Assembly: GCF_019303495.1 (NCBI RefSeq)
Contig: NZ_JAEVFI010000009.1
Span: forward strand, 1-64,000
Source: Streptomyces sp. JJ66
GTDB lineage: Bacteria; Actinomycetota; Actinomycetes; Streptomycetales; Streptomycetaceae
Direction: 5' to 3'
DNA: 64,000 nt
The position numbers were made by a program, and so were the translations under genes. Positions within the stretch are counted from its first letter, which is position 1, and the number at the start of each line of letters is the position of its first letter. This document shows, piece by piece, positions 57,111-64,000 of this stretch. The notes beneath the pieces were generated by a model, which worked only from the letters and a program-made list of their open reading frames with translations, was not told where the DNA came from and did not search any database.

Positions 57111-57197
57111 GTCCGGGTGGCGGAATGGCAGACGCGCTAGCTTGAGGTGCTAGTGCCCGTTAAGGGCGTGGGGGTTCAAGTCCCCCCTCGGACACCA
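57111..57197 (+). tRNA. tRNA-Leu (GAG)
   Basis: An 87-nt class-II tRNA with acceptor GTCCGGG/CTCGGAC, D-loop GGAATGGCAGAC, anticodon stem CTAGC/GCTAG with loop TTGAGGT (anticodon GAG), a long variable arm GCCCGTTAAGGGC, T-loop TTCAAGT and encoded CCA. It is the left boundary of a likely genomic island: its 3' half and terminator recur in diverged form at 62741-62817. Confidence 0.97.
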
Positions 57198-57202
57198 ACT
57201 AG

Positions 57203-57236
57203 GACCCCGGCTCGCCTGGGGTCTTTCTGTTTCTTT
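57203..57236 (+). terminator. tRNA-Leu terminator
   Basis: GACCCC (57203-57208) pairs with GGGGTC (57218-57223), followed by TTTCTGTTTCTTT. Typical intrinsic terminator right after the tRNA. Confidence 0.8.
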
Positions 57237-57247
57237 GGCTGTGGCGT

Positions 57248-57310
57248 GTCCAACCACGTGACGGAATCTCCCGGGCCACCTTGTACCGGCACATCGGTGA
57301 GAGTGCCTGA
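57248..57310 (+). pseudogene. C-terminal relic of a serine recombinase/resolvase
   Basis: The frame ending TGA at 57308-57310 reads RDGISRATLYRHIGESA, which resembles the resolvase HTH (G-x-SRATLYRxL). No longer frame precedes it, as the tRNA terminator lies just upstream. It fits a leftover of the element that inserted at the tRNA. Short, so caution is needed. Confidence 0.4.
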
Positions 57311-57385
57311 GGCAGGGGTACGGAAGCCGGACGCCAGGCCCCGGCGGAGGGAAGCCCGCCAGGGCTCCGGGATCAGTTCGTCACC

Positions 57386-57928
57386 TCAGAGGGCAGCGGG
57401 AAATTCTTCCGCTACCGCGTCCATCAGGAGTTCATCGCAGGGCCGACCGCGCCAGTAGCCGGACTGACGCAGGCGACCGGCGGGTTTGAACCCGGCCTTC
57501 TCATAGGCGGCGAGCCCTCCTGCGTTGGGCTCCAGTACCTTCAGCCAGACCATCCGCAGCGCGGCGTACTCGAATGCCCACCGCAGCGTCAGGGCCGTCG
57601 CCTCCGTGGCCAGCCCTTTGCCTCGCGCGTCCGGCGCGAGCAGGATGACGTACTCGGCGGTTCGAACGGCTGGGTCGATCTGGAGGGTGGTGAGACCGAC
57701 CGGAGTGCGCTCCTCAGTCGTGATCACCTCGAACTGGGGGAAGTCCCGGTTCCGTCCGGCCGCTTCCCATCCGCCGGCACGGACCTCCCAGGACTGGGGG
57801 ACCTGTGTCCCGAAGCCCAGGATCGTGCCGGGGTCGTTCTCCCAGCGGTGGTAGTCGGGCAGGTGGTCGCGGTCCGGCATGGCCAGGCTGACGCGCTTGC
57901 CCGGGAGCAGGATGTACGGGTCGGTCAT
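57386..57928 (-). CDS. GNAT N-acetyltransferase of the lasso-peptide operon
   Basis: A 180-aa GNAT. It has the acetyl-CoA motif PDARGKGLATEA (RxxGxG/A type), a helix RWAFEYAALRMVWLKVLEPN and AAYEKAGFK near the end. ATG 57928 overlaps the stop of the lasso B gene by 4 bp (ATGA), so it belongs to the operon. It resembles ribosomal-protein-alanine acetyltransferases, but the context points to acetylation of Lys10 in the predicted lasso core, as described for albusnodin. Last gene of the operon. Confidence 0.88.
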   Translation of the reverse strand: MTDPYILLPGKRVSLAMPDRDHLPDYHRWENDPGTILGFGTQVPQSWEVRAGGWEAAGRNRDFPQFEVITTEERTPVGLTTLQIDPAVRTAEYVILLAPDARGKGLATEATALTLRWAFEYAALRMVWLKVLEPNAGGLAAYEKAGFKPAGRLRQSGYWRGRPCDELLMDAVAEEFPAAL

Positions 57929-58563
57929 CGATACCTCTTCGACGTTGGCTCTGGCCCGTTGATGGGCGAGTAGTCCCCAGTGTGAGCCGGTTCCTCGACG
58001 GGCTGACCGTGAACGTCACAGATCCACGCGTGCATCCGAATCGGATCGGTGGCGACGCCGTGCCGCCAGGCTCCTCCACGACCGCCAGCCGCCAGCAGGA
58101 GCGCGGCTGTCGTGGACTCCTCCAGACATGCCACACGGGCGGGGAACAGGCGCGCGGCCCAGCGGACTGACCGGACTGCCAGGCTGGCGTGCGCCCGGGT
58201 CGGGCGAGGGAGGTTGCCGCCTGCTTCCGCCAGCCGTACCAGGCGGCCGAAGCTCGTGCGCCCTCGTCCCAGATGGCGCGTTGCGAGGGTGCCCGCGAGA
58301 AGCACGCTCGCCGCGATGCGCCACGACCACGGGGGCGGTGCCAGAGCGGCCAGCCGTGCGGCTGACTCACTCGTCCCCCATGAGGTTTCCGAAGGACGGA
58401 CCGTGACGGGGGCGGGTGCTTCGCTGTGTTCCAGGCTGTCGAGCCAGCGCGAGAGGGAATCGCCGGTAAGGACCATGGTTGTTCCGGTCCGGTAGTTCAC
58501 GACTACGCCCGCCGCTCCGGTCAGTGCGGTACGGGTGTGACGGCCCGGAGCGGGGACCTTCAC
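57925..58563 (-). CDS. Lasso peptide B protein (fused RRE and leader peptidase)
   Basis: A 212-aa protein. Residues about 1-50 look like a PqqD-type leader-recognition element (GVVVNYRTGTTMVLTGDSLSRW); residues about 110-200 are the transglutaminase-like lasso protease domain with Cys146 (FPARVACLEESTTAALLL) and His178 (RMHAWICDVHG). A likely Asp completes the triad. Actinobacterial B proteins are often split in two genes; here the parts are fused. GTG 58563 overlaps the C-gene stop by 4 bp and has GGAGG upstream. It removes the leader so that the Gly1 amine is free for cyclisation. Confidence 0.88.
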   Translation of the reverse strand: MKVPAPGRHTRTALTGAAGVVVNYRTGTTMVLTGDSLSRWLDSLEHSEAPAPVTVRPSETSWGTSESAARLAALAPPPWSWRIAASVLLAGTLATRHLGRGRTSFGRLVRLAEAGGNLPRPTRAHASLAVRSVRWAARLFPARVACLEESTTAALLLAAGGRGGAWRHGVATDPIRMHAWICDVHGQPVEEPAHTGDYSPINGPEPTSKRYR

Positions 58564-60257
58564 GGCCTGTCCTCCCAGCGGACTCGTTCGGTTGCGGTGT
58601 CGCTGATACGTAGCCATAGCTCGGTGCCGAGCAGCGGTTCGAGTAGTCCCCAAGGAATGTCCACTCCGAGCACGGCGCGCCGGAGAAGCGAGCGGAGGAC
58701 CGCCGGGTGTACAAGTCCGAGGTCCGCCAGGTACCCGTCAGCCAGCTCCAGGACGTTCGCCTGGTTAGCACGTAGGCCGTGGTGGTGGTCCACCGCGAAC
58801 AGCCCTTTTGAGCCGCGCCGCACCACCTCCCCGGGCAGAAGGCCCACGACCGCATCGGCAAGCAGCGGCTTGTACCGGCGGGCCGACCATCGGTCCGAGG
58901 CAGGGACCGACATCACCGCTTCCAGAACCCGGGCGTCCGTGTACGGGTTGTGCATCTCGATGCCGTACGCCCCGGCAAGCTGGTTCTCCGTCGCGGCGGT
59001 ACGGCCGACGTACCGTGCTTCGGCGAGAAGGTGGCGGTCGGCGTAGTCCAAGCCGTCAACGTCCGTCTCCGGCGAGATGACCGACGCGGCCAGGGTGGTC
59101 GCCTGGTGGGTGAGCCAGGGCTTCGGGAGCGCTACGCCTGCCAGCCGATCGGGCGCGTTCCAGGCCGCCGCCACAGCAGGCCAGGGGCTCGAACGGTAGA
59201 GGCGGCTCCACGCCTGAGCATCACGCGCTAGGCGGACAAGGCGGCCGGAGCGGGCCAGATCTGCCAGGTGGACCGGAGGCGGCATGAACAGGGTGTCACC
59301 ACCATCCCCGGTCAGATGCACGGAAGCACCCTCCTCCGACAGTAGAGCGAACTCGTGGCAGAGCTGCGCGACGGTCACGGCGGACGGTGCCGGCTCGTCG
59401 GTCAGGACCAAGGCGTCCAGGTCGGTGAACGGAAGGTGCTCGCGCCCCAGGGCCATGAACCGGTGCCGGATGGAGGGGAACGCACGGGCCACTGTGCGGG
59501 CGTGGTCCACGTCCCCACCCGACTCCCGGTCCTTGGGGTGGAAGGTGACTCCCAGGACTGGCCCGCACTGCGCGGCATAGGCCGTGAGAGTGCTGGAGTC
59601 CAGACCGCCGGACAGGTCAGAGGAGACTTCCCGCCCGCTCACCCGGACCAGCACGCCGCCCGACAGGTCGAGTCGTAACCTTTCCACCACCTCCGACCAC
59701 GTGGAAGAACATGGCCGCCAGTACGGCACGGAGAACGGCGACCCGTCACGCGGAGCCGTCCACCGGAAGCCCGGCGGTATCTGCACTACCCCGGTCCATG
59801 CCGACCGCCCCGGGACACAGGCGGTCGGGTGTGCGAGGTGGGCTGCCAGCCAGGCCGTGTCCGGCCGACTCCCCAACAGGGAGGCGAGCGCCAAGGAACT
59901 GGAGGCCCACACGGGCACGCCATCGACTTCTGCCACGTACAGGGGGCAGGAGCCTGCCGGGTCGGCCCACAGGGTGAACGATCCCGCGCCGTCGTCCAGG
60001 GCAAGGGCATAGGAGCCAGGCCAGGCCGATGCCGCCGCGTCGAACTCTCGCAAGTCCGTGGAACGGACCAGCCGCTCAAGTTCCGGGTTCGTCGCTCCGC
60101 ACGGGCCGAACACCCCCAACCTCCGCCCGCCCTCGCTCTCCGCCTGACGCACCGTAGTGCCCACGGCCCAGGCGTCCGGCTTCTGCCATAGGGCATCAGC
60201 GCCCACGGGTCTCGGGGCCTTGCCATAGGGGGCGAGTGCCCCACCGAACCAACGCAT
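58560..60257 (-). CDS. Lasso peptide macrolactam synthetase (asparagine synthetase-like C protein)
   Basis: A 565-aa asparagine-synthetase homologue. The N-terminal glutaminase-like domain lacks a catalytic Cys2 (starts MRWFGG), as in lasso cyclases; the PP-loop SGGLDSS is at 216-222. It adenylates the ring Glu/Asp side chain and forms the isopeptide bond with Gly1. ATG 60257 has AAGGAGGTGACGGC upstream. Codon 194 is TTA (59676-59678), rare in Streptomyces and needing bldA tRNA. It lies 67 bp after the precursor gene. Confidence 0.92.
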   Translation of the reverse strand: MRWFGGALAPYGKAPRPVGADALWQKPDAWAVGTTVRQAESEGGRRLGVFGPCGATNPELERLVRSTDLREFDAAASAWPGSYALALDDGAGSFTLWADPAGSCPLYVAEVDGVPVWASSSLALASLLGSRPDTAWLAAHLAHPTACVPGRSAWTGVVQIPPGFRWTAPRDGSPFSVPYWRPCSSTWSEVVERLRLDLSGGVLVRVSGREVSSDLSGGLDSSTLTAYAAQCGPVLGVTFHPKDRESGGDVDHARTVARAFPSIRHRFMALGREHLPFTDLDALVLTDEPAPSAVTVAQLCHEFALLSEEGASVHLTGDGGDTLFMPPPVHLADLARSGRLVRLARDAQAWSRLYRSSPWPAVAAAWNAPDRLAGVALPKPWLTHQATTLAASVISPETDVDGLDYADRHLLAEARYVGRTAATENQLAGAYGIEMHNPYTDARVLEAVMSVPASDRWSARRYKPLLADAVVGLLPGEVVRRGSKGLFAVDHHHGLRANQANVLELADGYLADLGLVHPAVLRSLLRRAVLGVDIPWGLLEPLLGTELWLRISDTATERVRWEDRP

Positions 60258-60324
60258 GCCGTCACCTCCTTCTGCGAGTGGCAAAGGGCGCGGCGGCACC
60301 CCGCGGGAATGCCGCCGCCGGGCG

Positions 60325-60453
60325 TCAGGCCCCGTAGGGCGAGCGCTTGTTCTCCACGCTGGAGTTGGTGTTGCCCTTCGTCAGGCGCGTCGCGTCCTCC
60401 AAGGGCACGACCTCCTCCTCCGGCTCGGTGTCGAGCTGGGAGCGGTTCTCCAT
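60325..60453 (-). CDS. Lasso peptide precursor
   Basis: A 42-aa peptide with a GGAGGTG ribosome site before ATG 60453. The 26-residue acidic leader (EPEEEVVPLED) ends in Thr-Lys, with Thr at the -2 position that lasso proteases require. The predicted core is GNTNSSVENKRSPYGA: Gly1, Glu8 for an 8-residue macrolactam ring, Lys10-Arg11 in the loop, Tyr14 as a possible plug. Gly1, Glu8, Lys10, Arg11 and Tyr14 agree in position with the albusnodin core as I recall it. First gene of the operon. Confidence 0.9.
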   Translation of the reverse strand: MENRSQLDTEPEEEVVPLEDATRLTKGNTNSSVENKRSPYGA

Positions 60454-60626
60454 GGTGTTCACCTCCGTTCGATATCCGTAGGGCGTGGAGGGGCGGCAGC
60501 CCCTGCACGGTGGTGCAACCTCCCGGTGCGAGTGATGCGGCCCGGGAGGAGCGTGGGCTGGATCGCTGCGTGCTCCACGCAGCTCCCCTCAGCCGGTCGG
60601 TTTCTGGTCCGGTACCGACCGATCGG

Positions 60627-60812
60627 TCAGGGCGACATGAGGTCTTCCACTTCGCTGTGCTGAGTCACGGTGACGCCGAGGAGGAACGGAGCCAGGACGT
60701 GGCCCAACACCCAGGTGGCGGTCAGCGCCGATCCGATGGGGTCGTGCCGTTCCCCACGATGCCGGCACCTGGCCCGGCCCGGCCCAAGATCCACCTCGTT
60801 CTCCGCTGCCAT
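60627..60812 (-). CDS. 61-aa small protein upstream of the lasso operon
   Basis: A short frame from ATG 60812 has AGGAG 8 nt upstream and coding-like third positions. The N-terminal half is polar, the second half is hydrophobic (IGSALTATWVLGHVLAPFLLGV), perhaps one membrane segment, ending EVEDLMSP. On the same strand as the lasso operon, 173 bp before the precursor, and divergent from the XRE regulator. No family recognised. Could be a regulatory or immunity factor; this is only inference from place. Confidence 0.5.
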   Translation of the reverse strand: MAAENEVDLGPGRARCRHRGERHDPIGSALTATWVLGHVLAPFLLGVTVTQHSEVEDLMSP

Positions 60813-60893
60813 GTCCGCACTCCTCCACAGGTTCACCACCGTGTCCGTTTGCGACAACCCCAAGAAAAGCGGAGGGAGTCCAAGCGCTCCACG

Positions 60894-60917
60894 GCATCAA
60901 TGCGCCAGTCTTGATGC
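60894..60917. promoter_or_regulatory. Inverted repeat upstream of the XRE regulator
   Basis: GCATCAA (60894-60900) and TTGATGC (60911-60917) with 10 bp between, flanked by CACGG and CCGTG. It lies 50 bp before the regulator start and between divergent genes, the expected place of its operator. Confidence 0.5.
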
Positions 60918-60967
60918 ACCTCCGTGCACGGGGATGCCACACGTTCAGGTCAGGGGAAGGGACCGTC

Positions 60968-62221
60968 ATGGGACTGGCGGAACGACGCAAAGCCCTGGGC
61001 TACAGTCAGGAGAAGCTGGCCGAGTTACTCGGGGTGGACCGAACCACGGTCGGGCGCTGGGAGAGCGGCAGGATCAAACCTCAGCCACCGCAGCGACGGG
61101 GCTTGGCCATCGCCCTCGAAGTCACTCTCGCCGAACTCGACGCCCTCCTGGCGCAGCCACGAGCAGCCATCCAGGAGGCCACAGCGCACCAGTCCAGTGA
61201 CCACCCAGGCCCGGGAGACCCCGACGAAATGATCCGCCGCGAATTCCTCCGCATCCTCACCGTCAGCGGAGCCCTCACCGCCCTGCCGTTGGAGGAGGCG
61301 GAAGCCCTCACCGAGGGAGTACGCAGGGGTGCACCCGCCGACTTCACGCGGATGAACAGCCACCTGTGGCAGGTCTACCAGCTAGCCCGCTCCAAAGGCT
61401 CCGTCTACCCCATCGTCCGCGACCAGCTCTCGACACTGAACGAAGCCCTGGCGGACACCCGTGGCAACTCACGCCCTCTCCTCAGCGCGGCAGCCGACCT
61501 CTTCCAGCTCGCCGGAGAAGTCGCCTTCGACGCCAACCGATACACCGACGCGGCAGCGTCCTACTCCCTGGCGGCGTCCGTCAGCAAGGACGCCCAAGCC
61601 TTCGACCTGTGGGCATGTGCCCTCGTCCGGCACGCCTACGTGGACGTGTACGAACACCGTTACGAGCAGGCGGCACAGATACTCGGAGCGGCGGAGACAC
61701 TGGCTCAGCGGGGAGACAGCAGCCTCGCCACTCGTCATTGGGTCGCCGCTGTCCAGGCCGAGGCGTACGCCGGCATGGGCGACCTGACCTCGTGCGAGCG
61801 CGCGCTGGACGAGGCCGAGCGGGTGTTAGAGCTGGGCACGGACAGCACCAACGGAGGCTGGCTGCGCTTCGACGGCACTCGGCTGGCCGAGGAACGGGGA
61901 GCCCGCTACGTACAGCTTGGCCGCCTTGACCTGGCAGAAGAGACCTTGAAGCAGGCACTGACCCAGACCGCCCTTGCCTCTGGGCAGTCGTACCGGCGCA
62001 GGGGCGCCGTACTAGCCGATCTTGCCGCCGTCGGGGCGAAGCGGCGTGACCCGGAACAAGTCGTCGTATACGGGCGGGAAGCCATCCGGTTGGCCCAAGC
62101 ATCATCGTCCGGGTACGTCGCCCGTAGACCCCAAGCCTTGTGCGATGAGTTCGGCCCCCTGAGCAGGGACCGCCGGGTAGCGGAGCTGGGGGCGGAGATC
62201 GCCACGCTGAGCACGCCGTGA
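60968..62221 (+). CDS. XRE-type regulator with TPR-like domain, two TTA codons
   Basis: A 417-aa protein with an N-terminal XRE HTH (YSQEKLAELLGVDRTTVGRW) and a long helical TPR-like region, the plan of many Streptomyces cluster regulators. Leu codons 20 (61025-61027) and 287 (61826-61828) are TTA, so translation should require bldA tRNA and be late. ATG 60968 has GAAGGG upstream. Divergent from the 61-aa gene and the lasso operon, so it is the probable cluster regulator. Followed by an overlapping or close small gene. Confidence 0.88.
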   Translation: MGLAERRKALGYSQEKLAELLGVDRTTVGRWESGRIKPQPPQRRGLAIALEVTLAELDALLAQPRAAIQEATAHQSSDHPGPGDPDEMIRREFLRILTVSGALTALPLEEAEALTEGVRRGAPADFTRMNSHLWQVYQLARSKGSVYPIVRDQLSTLNEALADTRGNSRPLLSAAADLFQLAGEVAFDANRYTDAAASYSLAASVSKDAQAFDLWACALVRHAYVDVYEHRYEQAAQILGAAETLAQRGDSSLATRHWVAAVQAEAYAGMGDLTSCERALDEAERVLELGTDSTNGGWLRFDGTRLAEERGARYVQLGRLDLAEETLKQALTQTALASGQSYRRRGAVLADLAAVGAKRRDPEQVVVYGREAIRLAQASSSGYVARRPQALCDEFGPLSRDRRVAELGAEIATLSTP

Positions 62222-62235
62222 CGAGAGGGGTTGGC

Positions 62236-62595
62236 ATGTCGCAGGTCGAAGGCGCACGAGTGTTCCGGGAATCCTGGATCGAAGGAGTGCACCGCCACTT
62301 CCCGGGGGAGCCGAAGCCCGGGTACGTCACCCCTTGGGAGGACACGCCCCAGTGGGAGCGGGAGGCCGCAGGCGCCGTGTATGACCAAGTCCGCCAGTTC
62401 ATCGAGATCAGCGGCGGTCACACGGCGAAGCTGTCTCGTGAGCAGAAGGGCCGGTTCGTGGCGGTGTGCTGGACGGCGCAGATGTTCAAGCACTTCGAAA
62501 GCCCCAAGCCGGGGTACGTCGCCGACTGGCCCGACCTCCCGGCATGGCAGCAGGAGACCGACGCCGATATCTTCGAGGTCATCGAAAAGTCCTGA
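62236..62595 (+). CDS. Hypothetical protein with an internal duplication
   Basis: A 119-aa protein. Two copies of the pattern PKPGYVxxWxDxPxWQxE occur (about residues 26-43 and 90-107), each followed by a short helix ending in IxExI or QVRQFI. ATG 62236 has GAGAGGGG upstream; a GTG at 62218 overlaps the regulator stop. Cotranscribed with the regulator. The repeated motif is unfamiliar to me; it may be a tandem small domain. No function assigned. Confidence 0.75.
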   Translation: MSQVEGARVFRESWIEGVHRHFPGEPKPGYVTPWEDTPQWEREAAGAVYDQVRQFIEISGGHTAKLSREQKGRFVAVCWTAQMFKHFESPKPGYVADWPDLPAWQQETDADIFEVIEKS

Positions 62596-62615
62596 TCGAG
62601 CCCATGGCCCGAGGA

Positions 62616-62631
62616 TTGGTCACGTGACCAA
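62616..62631. other. 16-bp perfect palindrome
   Basis: TTGGTCACGTGACCAA is an exact 16-bp inverted repeat with a partial direct copy CGTGACC right after. It lies downstream of the 119-aa gene and before the tRNA remnant. It may be a recombination or regulator site. The intergenic stretch 62596-62740 has no gene. Confidence 0.5.
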
Positions 62632-62740
62632 CGCGTGACCAGCACAGGTCCGAGAGAGCCCGATACAGCAGCCAAGAACAGGGGAAACGCCTACCGAAAC
62701 CAAGCCTGTATACGGCCTTTCTCCAGGTCGGAGCGGTTGC

Positions 62741-62817
62741 GTGTTGGTGCCCGAGCGGAGAGTTCAAGTCCTTCTCGCACACCTGCTAAGACCCCTGCTC
62801 ACCTGGGTTTTTCTGTT
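62741..62817 (+). repeat. Diverged copy of tRNA-Leu 3' half and terminator (att-like)
   Basis: GTGTTGGTGCCCG (62741) and GTTCAAGTCC onward to TTTCTGTT (62817) align with 57147-57231 of tRNA-Leu and its terminator at about 80% by eye. The T-stem no longer pairs, so it is not a working tRNA. It looks like an old attachment-site duplicate at the right end of a 5.6-kb insertion. Confidence 0.65.
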
Positions 62818-62912: not shown

Positions 62913-64000
62913 TCAGGCCCGGGAGATGGTGAGCCGGGAGTGGCGGTTGCTGACCACAATCCCGTCGAGTCCGTCCTCGGCGGCGTCTGGCGGGAAGACA
63001 CGGATGATCGGCTCCGGTGTCGCACCGCGCCCCAGGCTGTTCCAGGTCCGGATACTCTCCGCCATGGCGTGGGCCGGTGCTGCGTGGTCAGTGCCGTAGG
63101 CACGGACACCCAGTTCGAATCCGCCCGAGGAGCCGGGCCGCATGGTGAGGTAGGCAACCGTGTCGTGGGTCCAGGTGGCGGTCGCGGCGATAGTCCACCC
63201 CGACAGGCCCATTTCCGCCGCCTGCGAACTGGCATACACCGTTCCCGAGGGGTCGGTGGTGCTGGTGAGCCACAGCTCCAGTGACGGCAGCACACCCTCA
63301 TCACCCCGCAACACCACCCCGGTCCACTCCGTTGACTCCTCGCCCGAGGCAACGGCCTCCCGCAGGGCGTCTGAGTCAGCGGCTTGGTCGCGGCTGATCA
63401 CCAGCCGCAGATCGCTGCCTGCCAGTTCAATCGACTGTACCGAGTGGGTGTTATCCCCCTGCATACCGACGAAGCCACACCGGGTGGAGTCCCTGCTCAC
63501 CAGGTGGTCGCCCTCATGCTCGAACGTCAGGACGCGATGGGTCCCCCGAAACGTCAAGGGCACCACCAGGCGGCCGTTTGTCGCGAGCTGAGAACGCCAA
63601 GCGGCCGGGATGTCGGGGGCCTGCACCGTGACGATGATCGCGTCGAAGCCGCCCTCGGCTGCCAGCTCCGCAGCTCCGTAGGTGCCGTCCCCCGTCAGCA
63701 CCTTCACCCGGCCGTAGCCTGCCCTCGCCAACAGCTTCTCGGCGCGCTCGGTCACCTCGATATCAATGTCGAGGCTGACGACCTCTCCCTCCGACCCGAC
63801 TACCTCAGCCATGAGCGCGGCGTTGTACCCACCGGAACCGATCTCCAGCGCCCGCATCCCCGGCCGCAGCCCGGCCAGCTCCAGCATCCGCGCCTGTACC
63901 CACGGCGCGGACACCGTACTCAGCGCAACTCCCCGCACATCACGCTTCGTCGCGAAAGAATCATTCGTGTACGCCTGCTCCAGTGAGCATTCGGGGATGA
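62913..64000 (-). CDS. Partial FxLD-system PCMT-like methyltransferase
   Basis: Open from the stop at 62913 to the right edge; the N-terminus lies outside. A protein-isoaspartate-methyltransferase fold is seen: SVSAPW, the SAM motif ALEIGSGGYNAALMAEVV, VVSLDIDIEV and LLTGDGTYG-like segments, with a C-terminal extension of about 200 residues. The sequence upstream of GTG 63938 (LEQAYTNDSFATKRD) is the normal family continuation, so that GTG is not the start. FxLD-type methyltransferases accompany lanthipeptide-like RiPP genes, probably to the right of the window. Confidence 0.82.
   Translation of the reverse strand, partial: IPECSLEQAYTNDSFATKRDVRGVALSTVSAPWVQARMLELAGLRPGMRALEIGSGGYNAALMAEVVGSEGEVVSLDIDIEVTERAEKLLARAGYGRVKVLTGDGTYGAAELAAEGGFDAIIVTVQAPDIPAAWRSQLATNGRLVVPLTFRGTHRVLTFEHEGDHLVSRDSTRCGFVGMQGDNTHSVQSIELAGSDLRLVISRDQAADSDALREAVASGEESTEWTGVVLRGDEGVLPSLELWLTSTTDPSGTVYASSQAAEMGLSGWTIAATATWTHDTVAYLTMRPGSSGGFELGVRAYGTDHAAPAHAMAESIRTWNSLGRGATPEPIIRVFPPDAAEDGLDGIVVSNRHSRLTISRA

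What the first reader, a model, noticed from the sequence alone, without database searches (positions are those of the whole stretch)
57386..60453. Albusnodin-like acetylated lasso-peptide operon with core GNTNSSVENKRSPYGA
Precursor, cyclase, fused RRE/protease and GNAT gene lie in one operon with successive 4-bp overlaps. The 42-aa precursor is easily missed. The core fits a Gly1-Glu8 ring with Lys10 as acetylation target. Compared with albusnodin (from memory), Gly1, Glu8, Lys10, Arg11 and Tyr14 coincide but the rest differs, so the product is probably new. No exporter gene is present.
Basis: partly seen in the sequence, partly recalled or inferred. Interest (0 to 1): 0.92.

Follow-up and report, generated by a model that had tools for sequence, protein, structure and literature searches.

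The report
Albusnodin-family lasso peptide gene cluster
A Streptomyces-type genome carries a compact, apparently mobile set of genes for a knotted, probably acetylated peptide of a known family (albusnodin), and relatives in which only the acetylating enzyme survives suggest that acetylation may protect cells from the peptide rather than merely decorate it.

Summary
Precursor (60325-60453), cyclase (58560-60257), B protein (57925-58563) and GNAT (57386-57928) form one minus-strand operon. Precursor and cyclase exceed NCBI's curated cut-offs for the albusnodin family: a new member of a known kind. The core shares five of 16 positions with published albusnodin (G1, E8, K10, R11, Y14). G1, E8, K10, Y14 and Thr(-2) are invariant in the 25 family precursors collected. 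The core is recurrent: identical in 6 of 7 aligned relatives. The RRE half of B stays inconclusive. No ABC ATPase was found in 26 stretches scanned.

Beyond the finding: the operon lies in a 5.6-kb cassette between tRNA-Leu and a degenerate copy of its 3' end, and relatives carry it at other tRNA-Leu genes. And 12 of 26 GNAT homologues in 392 Streptomyces genomes lack a complete lasso set beside them, six with relics of one. Orphan GNATs show purifying selection, weaker in one clade. This favours a protective role, as reported for triculamin and lariocidin; counterexamples exist.

The parts
60325..60453 (-). lasso precursor (42 aa), leader MENRSQLDTEPEEEVVPLEDATRLTK, core GNTNSSVENKRSPYGA; Thr at -2
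   Evidence: NF033525 39.1 bits, cut-off 30; core identical in 6 of 7 aligned relatives of the same subtype; start and ribosome-binding site read
60262..60324 (-). hairpin between precursor and cyclase genes, a possible attenuator that keeps the precursor in excess
   Evidence: 13-pair stem in the window; a hairpin at the same place in all 6 loci folded, with paired changes between window and L012 seen by eye; z-score against shuffles -1.4 to -3.3
58560..60257 (-). lasso cyclase (565 aa): PP-loop SGGLDS at residue 216; starts MRWFGG, so no Cys2 glutaminase nucleophile
   Evidence: NF033561 651.7 bits, cut-off 300 (frame scanned from 60299); PF00733; motifs
57925..58563 (-). B protein (212 aa): C-terminal B2 cysteine protease with Cys146 and His178; N-terminal 80 aa possibly a reduced RRE
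   Evidence: NF033537 74.9 bits on residues 81-202 of the frame scanned; PF13471; C146 and H178 invariant in 9 aligned sequences; RRE not shown
57386..57928 (-). GNAT acetyltransferase (180 aa), motif A RGKGLA at residue 102
   Evidence: PF13302 and PF00583; PDB 9iy3/9iy4/9ubc E 2.3e-42; motif
60627..60812 (-). small ORF (about 60 aa, one hydrophobic stretch), upstream of the precursor gene; role unknown
   Evidence: kept in frame in the Streptomyces-type relatives L009-L013, L015 and L060; pairwise dN/dS 0.41-0.66 against the window in 6 pairs; no significant hit in Kitasatospora L014
60911..62221 (+). divergent NsdA-family regulator with XRE-type HTH, probable cluster regulator
   Evidence: NF053720 152.4 bits, cut-off 75; dN/dS 0.13-0.18 in 5 pairs
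62218..62595 (+). 125-aa protein of unknown function, overlapping the regulator's stop; travels with the cassette
   Evidence: 92-98% identity in L009-L013, L015, L017, L060 and L130, and a 48-aa fragment at 81% in L016; no hit in L014
57111..57197 (+). tRNA-Leu (GAG), one edge of the cassette
   Evidence: ARAGORN
62762..62817 (+). degenerate copy of the tRNA-Leu 3' end and its terminator, the other edge of the cassette
   Evidence: 47 of 58 alignment columns identical, blastn E 1e-10

Best explanation
An intact albusnodin-family lasso peptide cluster carried on a small tRNA-Leu-associated cassette. The precursor is recognised through its leader and cut by the B protein after Lys(-1) (Thr at -2). 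The cyclase activates Glu8 with ATP and closes a Gly1-Glu8 macrolactam around the tail. The GNAT transfers acetyl from acetyl-CoA to the side chain of Lys10, the only lysine of the core and the second residue after the ring. A 67-nt gap with a hairpin may let the precursor be made in excess, and the divergent NsdA-type gene probably regulates the operon. Shown here: the genes, family membership, and conservation of G1, E8, K10, Y14 and T(-2). Inferred from the family: cleavage, ring, threading and acetylation. Inferred and less certain: acetylation also, or mainly, disarms the peptide inside the producer.
For: Family models above curated cut-offs. G1, E8, K10, Y14 and Thr(-2) in 25 of 25 precursors printed (14 distinct cores; 23 parsed by the script, L020 and L097 read by eye), while ring positions 2-7 vary. 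A review states that albusnodin's cluster has albA, albB, albC and the acetyltransferase albT, that Lys10 carries the acetyl group and that Lys10 is highly conserved in similar clusters (passages of PMC9266682). Window GNAT matches PDB 9iy3 at E 2.3e-42; that chain groups with the GNATs of the albusnodin-core loci in the tree (100/100, on a long branch). The GNAT is the best conserved of the four proteins towards Kitasatospora L014: 82%, against 66% for the precursor and 62% for C and B; dN/dS 0.07-0.19 in 7 pairs, against 0.15-0.37 for C in 6 pairs and 0.18-0.38 for B in 5 pairs. Gene order A-C-B-GNAT recurs on 6 of 8 plasmids that hold the GNAT and is annotated there as albusnodin family.
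Against: No product has been seen. The RRE half of B is not demonstrated: AlphaFold2 mean pLDDT 44.5 (block means of 60-84 only for residues 1-50), no PDB match with E <= 0.001, the lasso RRE TbiB1 (5v1u) only at rank 16 with E 1.3, and no hhalign match to the PqqD-like protein of the same genome's other lasso cluster, a weak test with a thin profile. Core positions 2-7, 9, 12, 13, 15 and 16 differ from albusnodin, so ring size by analogy is not proof.
Confidence: 0.87

Rival explanations
1. The GNAT is chiefly an immunity enzyme. It acetylates Lys10 of the finished or nascent lasso to disarm it inside the producer (no ABC exporter is encoded), and orphan copies protect strains against neighbours' peptides. 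The bioactive form would be the unacetylated lasso, which I found no report of having been isolated in the passages seen.
For: 12 of 26 GNAT homologues (E <= 1e-40, 392 Streptomyces-genus genomes) have no complete A-C-B set beside them; 6 of the 12 keep relics of it (L081, L082, L083, L089, L090, L091). The stretches have no N and one search reports no stops inside. Cluster and orphan labels need 6 changes on the tree, at least 4 forced by well-supported branches (L089, L016 and L017 were labelled cluster there). Orphan pairs show dN/dS 0.19-0.53 (10 pairs of L084-L088) and 0.23 (L082-L083). Precursor hits over cut-off lacking a GNAT: 1 of 18 (L099); albusnodin-type cyclases lacking any GNAT: 0 of 17, Fisher p 0.001 against 12 of 26. 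Lys acetylation is reported as self-resistance for triculamin and lariocidin (passage of PMC13352647). Without albT no unacetylated albusnodin was seen (passage of PMC9266682), as expected if it were harmful to the host.
Against: If damaged GNATs count as lost, 3 of 17 cyclases lack an intact one (L057 and L065 read in two frames, contig C48 with a run of 15 N) and p is 0.10; both tests treat related loci as independent. In L015 and L099 the GNAT was deleted while the precursor stayed. In L057 and L065 the GNAT is broken along with an incomplete cyclase. In L016 and L017 B is kept with the GNAT. Selection is weaker in the relic-free clade L084-L088 (0.19-0.53) than among five pairs of cluster GNATs (0.11-0.22), and part of the L082-L083 divergence may predate the losses. 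The root inside the GNAT clade is unresolved, so L084-L088 might descend from a GNAT that never sat in a lasso cluster. L089 and L081 come from draft genomes. No resistance test exists.
Confidence: 0.38
2. The GNAT is purely biosynthetic: acetylation early in maturation is required for folding or stability and gives the active product; orphan GNATs have drifted to other amine substrates.
For: Loss of albT abolished detectable albusnodin, and the review infers an early step (passages of PMC9266682). An intact GNAT accompanies 14 of 17 albusnodin-type cyclases and a damaged one the other 3. The GNAT is related to spermidine acetyltransferases, so a change of substrate is plausible, and the L084-L088 clade is less constrained than cluster GNATs.
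Against: A review of 2026 counts acetylation among the modifications installed after threading; the passage does not say for which peptides (PMC13352647). Repeated survival of GNAT genes beside dead clusters needs another explanation for each case.
Confidence: 0.45
3. The operon is decayed or silent and makes nothing.
For: Three relatives of the same cassette are decayed (L015, L016, L017).
Against: All four window ORFs are open with catalytic motifs in place; dN/dS well below 1 for the three enzymes and a near-invariant core.
Confidence: 0.08

Closest known systems
Albusnodin (Streptomyces albus DSM 41398; Zong et al. 2018, paper itself not held; seen through passages of reviews PMC9266682 and PMC12427821)
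   Same: Gene set A, B, C and GNAT (review); order A-C-B-GNAT as in loci that carry albusnodin's exact core (L052-L054); core length 16; G1, E8, K10, R11, Y14; Thr at -2 in those loci
   Different: 11 of 16 core residues; C-terminal Gly-Ala instead of Asn-Cys; window cyclase 37-38% identical to those of L052-L054
Second albusnodin-family locus of the same genome (contig C48, locus L020)
   Same: A-C-B-GNAT order; cyclase 737 bits, precursor 69.1 bits
   Different: Core GQGMGSSEDKRRAYN, i.e. the albusnodin subtype without the final Cys; its GNAT is interrupted by a run of 15 N and matches in two frames
Triculamin and lariocidin (self-resistance by Lys acetylation; passage of PMC13352647)
   Same: A lasso peptide acetylated on Lys
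   Different: Lariocidin core SKKSKPGDGKFGRGVKRG starts with Ser and closes an 8-residue ring on Asp (passages of PMC12427821); here Gly1 and Glu8. Triculamin's core was not seen.
Lower-scoring cyclases of the same NCBI family, found here near a PIMT-like methyltransferase (L066-L070); lihuanodin-type by my reading
   Same: Cyclase family NF033561
   Different: Cyclase scores 344-368 bits for the five looked at, different cores, methyltransferase and no GNAT match

Membership tests
Albusnodin family lasso peptides | Precursor matches NF033525 over its curated cut-off | tested here: met
   39.1 bits against 30
Albusnodin family lasso peptides | Cyclase matches NF033561 over its cut-off and lies beside the precursor | tested here: met
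   651.7 bits against 300, 67 nt downstream
Albusnodin family lasso peptides | B2-type protease in the operon | tested here: met
   NF033537 74.9 bits against 33
Albusnodin family lasso peptides | GNAT of the albusnodin type in the operon | tested here: met
   Falls with the other cluster GNATs apart from five outgroup GNATs (97/99)
Albusnodin family lasso peptides | Gly1, Glu8 and Lys10 in the core | tested here: met
   Window core; same in the other 24 family precursors collected
Albusnodin family lasso peptides | RRE fused to the protease | tested here: inconclusive
   Low-confidence model, no significant fold or profile match
Albusnodin family lasso peptides | Threaded Gly1-Glu8 ring and acetyl on Lys10 in the product | not testable with these tools
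   Needs expression and MS/MS
Triculamin/lariocidin type | Core like lariocidin's, starting with Ser and closing on Asp8 | tested here: not met
   Core starts with Gly; position 8 is Glu
Triculamin/lariocidin type | GNAT confers self-resistance | tested here: inconclusive
   Comparative evidence only: orphan GNATs under purifying selection, with counterexamples
Methyltransferase-bearing lasso clusters of the same cyclase family | PIMT-like methyltransferase belongs to the cluster | tested here: not met
   The PIMT-like FxLD-system gene at 62913 gives no hit in 11 stretches with the cassette or its remains from 10 relatives

The most novel reading that the evidence does not exclude
In the whole albusnodin family the GNAT is a resistance enzyme rather than a tailoring enzyme. 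Acetyl-Lys10 albusnodin would be the disarmed form, the real weapon would be the unacetylated lasso, and orphan GNATs scattered through Streptomyces chromosomes and plasmids would be a cross-immunity pool against it.
Probability: 0.36. Interest if true: 0.75.

Novelty: new member of a known kind. Interest (0 to 1): 0.45.

Why it matters
The cluster itself adds a recurrent core subtype to the albusnodin family. The comparative result matters more: it gives a directly testable answer to why these peptides are acetylated and why the acetyltransferase-less cluster yields nothing, and it suggests looking for activity in the unacetylated form.

Tried and rejected
Methyltransferase-tailored lasso (the PIMT-like FxLD gene, 62913 to 64163 in contig coordinates): rejected, it does not travel with the cassette. 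Dedicated exporter: no ABC ATPase by a motif scan in 26 stretches around 25 clusters (the window's cluster twice; some stretches are short, 3.7-8 kb), with the ABC exporter of the same genome's other lasso cluster found as positive control; MFS and other exporters were not scanned. RRE test by AlphaFold2, Foldseek and hhalign: inconclusive. Search of 396 genomes across the phylum at E <= 1e-120: 1 of 396, the window's own genome. PDB entries 9iy3/9iy4/9ubc in papers: none. Three core fragments in papers: none. Lasso peptide + immunity + acetyltransferase + orphan: three papers, none on lasso acetyltransferases by title. PDB sequence searches with B and with the cyclase found nothing. Passages of PMC12637814 were seen and proved irrelevant.

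Own errors: one search failed on a wrong file path; one search used a misframed B query for contig C48 (corrected); one search used a misframed M20 query with stops removed (repeated correctly); one intended outgroup row (L137) was in fact the orphan L083 and another (L136) gave no hit, so the real outgroup is five rows. Precursors not in the core count: those of the plasmids L147 and L148, of L064 (on another contig), L065, L016 and L017 (not found), and L056, L058 and L059 (same genomes as L012, L011 and L010).
Full report
WHAT IS THERE. The minus-strand operon 60453 to 57386 encodes a 42-aa precursor, a 565-aa cyclase, a 212-aa B protein and a 180-aa GNAT. C/B and B/GNAT overlap by 4 bp (GTGA, ATGA); precursor and cyclase are 67 nt apart. 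The gap folds into a hairpin in the window and in the 5 relatives tried (L009, L011-L014); the stem differs between window and L012 by paired changes (read by eye; z-scores -1.4 to -3.3), which looks like the attenuator that often keeps a precursor in excess (general knowledge of RiPP operons).

FAMILY. NCBIfam puts the precursor (39.1 bits, cut-off 30), cyclase (651.7, cut-off 300) and B (74.9, cut-off 33) over curated cut-offs as albusnodin family lasso peptide, albusnodin/ikarugamycin family macrolactam cyclase and lasso B2 protein. The GNAT passes Pfam PF13302 and PF00583. The cyclase has the PP-loop SGGLDS and begins MRWFGG, so it lacks the Cys2 of glutamine-hydrolysing relatives; B has Cys146 and His178; the GNAT has RGKGLA (the meaning of these motifs is recalled). 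Albusnodin's Lys10 acetylation, its conservation, and the failure to detect product without albT are taken from passages of the review PMC9266682; the original paper is not held.

CONSERVATION. One scan of genome contigs with the window cyclase gave 10 loci, nine of them close relatives: complete A-C-B-GNAT in L009-L014, decayed in L015-L017; L018 is distant (26% identity). The window precursor and seven of the same subtype (L009-L013, L015, L060) were compared; the core is identical in 6 of the 7, with N4S in L012, while the leader varies more. Kitasatospora L014 has GSTSESVENKRSPYGG. Across 25 family precursors printed (14 distinct cores; two read by eye because the script's pattern missed them), G1, E8, K10, Y14 and Thr(-2) never vary; R11 is replaced by Q in L062 and L063. 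The set was collected by similarity to the family, so it shows what is conserved within the family only. Towards L014 the GNAT is 82% identical, the precursor 66%, C and B 62%, and the GNAT's dN/dS is the lowest of the three enzymes.

DISTRIBUTION. Of 392 Streptomyces-genus genomes, 34 have a cyclase over the cut-off; at E <= 1e-80 the scores fall in two groups, 17 places at 590 bits or more and the rest at 368 or less. In the five lower-scoring loci I looked at (L066-L070), a PIMT-like methyltransferase lies nearby and no GNAT match. A draw of 396 genomes across the phylum at E <= 1e-120 gave only the window's own genome. On plasmids, 8 records carry the GNAT; 6 have the complete set, 2 do not: H1, which is the same place as L091, and H8, whose neighbours are annotated without lasso genes and were not searched for relics. 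The window's genome holds a second albusnodin-family locus on contig C48 and two further lasso B2 genes.

NO ABC EXPORTER. A motif scan for ABC ATPases found none in 26 stretches around 25 albusnodin-type clusters, and did find the exporter of the other lasso cluster of the same genome. Some stretches are short and only ABC exporters were tested.

A MOBILE CASSETTE. The operon, a small ORF, the NsdA-type regulator and a 125-aa protein lie between tRNA-Leu (57111-57197) and a 58-column, 81% copy of its 3' end and terminator at 62762-62817 (E 1e-10). Among nine relatives of the window subtype (L009-L013, L015-L017, L060), a tRNA-Leu 3' fragment lies beyond the 125-aa gene in 7 (not L013 or L017), and a tRNA-Leu gene lies downstream of the GNAT in L011, L013 (anticodon CAG), L016, L017 and L060, and about 5 kb away for L012 (locus L130); none was found in the flanks held of L009 and L010. 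Within the flanks held, the M20 peptidase gene next to the window's tRNA is shared only with L016; in the genome of L012 the M20-linked tRNA-Leu is on another contig without the cassette (L131), while the cassette sits near a different tRNA-Leu. I saw no integrase among the cassette's genes. This is best read as an old tRNA-directed insertion unit, but the mechanism of movement is not shown.

THE GNAT OUTLIVES THE CLUSTER. A search of the same 392 genomes with the GNAT gave 26 places in 24 genomes (E <= 1e-40). Fourteen I take as complete clusters; two of these (G150, G292) are split across contigs, so completeness is inferred. Twelve are not: L081 (B frameshifted, no A or C found), L082 (a 50-aa piece of C fused to the tail of B), L083 (only the last codons of B), L090 (a B tail), L091 (the last part of B; a linear plasmid), L089 (C with an internal gap of about 209 residues, draft genome), and L084-L088 and L093 without recognisable relics. 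One search reports no stops inside any of the 26, and the orphan stretches hold no N. On a maximum-likelihood tree the cluster/orphan label needs 6 changes, at least 4 forced by well-supported branches (L089, L016 and L017 labelled cluster, L057 and L065 left out). With five outgroup GNATs added, cluster and orphan copies form one clade (97/99), but the root within it is not resolved. Orphan pairs have dN/dS of 0.19-0.53 (10 pairs of L084-L088) and 0.23 (L082-L083); five pairs of cluster GNATs have 0.11-0.22, so the relic-free clade is under weaker constraint. In the other direction, 0 of 17 albusnodin-type cyclases lack a GNAT entirely, although 2 have one read in two frames (L057, L065) and 1 has one interrupted by 15 N (contig C48), and 1 of 18 precursors over the cut-off (L099) has lost all but its tail. 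Fisher p is 0.001 for 12/26 against 0/17, but 0.10 if the three damaged GNATs count as lost, and both figures treat related loci as independent. Against the reading: L015 and L099 lost the GNAT but kept the precursor, and L016 and L017 kept B together with the GNAT. Of the 12 decayed clusters with relics (L015, L016, L017, L057, L065, L081-L083, L089-L091, L099), the GNAT is intact in 8; six of those eight were found by searching with the GNAT, so this share is biased upward.

MECHANISM. The steps from precursor to lasso follow the family. For the acetyl group there are two readings: an obligatory tailoring step, or disarming. The second has precedents in triculamin and lariocidin (one passage of PMC13352647), fits the absence of an ABC exporter and the failure of albT-less expression, and predicts what is seen in the genomes. 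I put it at somewhat over one in three; both can be true together.

NOVELTY. The cluster is a new member of an annotated family. None of three core fragments occurs in the held papers, and 17 held papers mention albusnodin, of which I saw passages of three (PMC13352647, PMC9266682, PMC12427821). I noticed no paper on orphan lasso GNATs in the listings, but most subscription papers are not held.

Noticed in passing
57198-62817: Seven-gene cassette between tRNA-Leu and a degenerate copy of its 3' end; relatives carry it at other tRNA-Leu genes, and three relatives (L015, L016, L017) show large deletions inside it.
   Followed up: partly
60262-60324: Hairpin between precursor and cyclase genes, at the same place in all 6 loci folded, with paired changes in the stem seen by eye.
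   Followed up: partly
60627-60812: Small ORF with one hydrophobic stretch, kept in frame in relatives of the window subtype (dN/dS 0.41-0.66), no significant hit in Kitasatospora L014; the window's stop lies earlier than in L011, L012 and L015.
   Followed up: partly
62218-62595: 125-aa protein of unknown function with an internal repeat (PKPGYV, seen by eye), overlapping the regulator and travelling with the cassette; no Pfam or NCBIfam match.
   Followed up: partly
62913-64000: Methyltransferase of the FxLD lanthipeptide type (TIGR04364, 331.4 bits for the part scanned in the window, cut-off 320), continuing past the window end; next to but not part of the cassette.
   Followed up: partly
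L020 (contig C48 of the same genome): Second albusnodin-family locus, core GQGMGSSEDKRRAYN without the terminal Cys; upstream lie a protein with an EgtB-like domain and an aminotransferase-like protein; GNAT interrupted by a run of 15 N.
   Followed up: partly
L135 (contig C17 of the same genome, 309-656): Fragment of a further GNAT nearly the same as the one on C48, whose match ends inside the frame.
   Followed up: no
L066-L070: Lower-scoring cyclases of NF033561 lie near a PIMT-like methyltransferase in 5 of 5 loci looked at, so the family name covers at least two tailoring types.
   Followed up: partly
L100 (contig C40 of the same genome): Another lasso-type cluster with its own B2 protein, PqqD-like protein and ABC exporter; a fourth B2 gene is on contig C9.
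   Followed up: no
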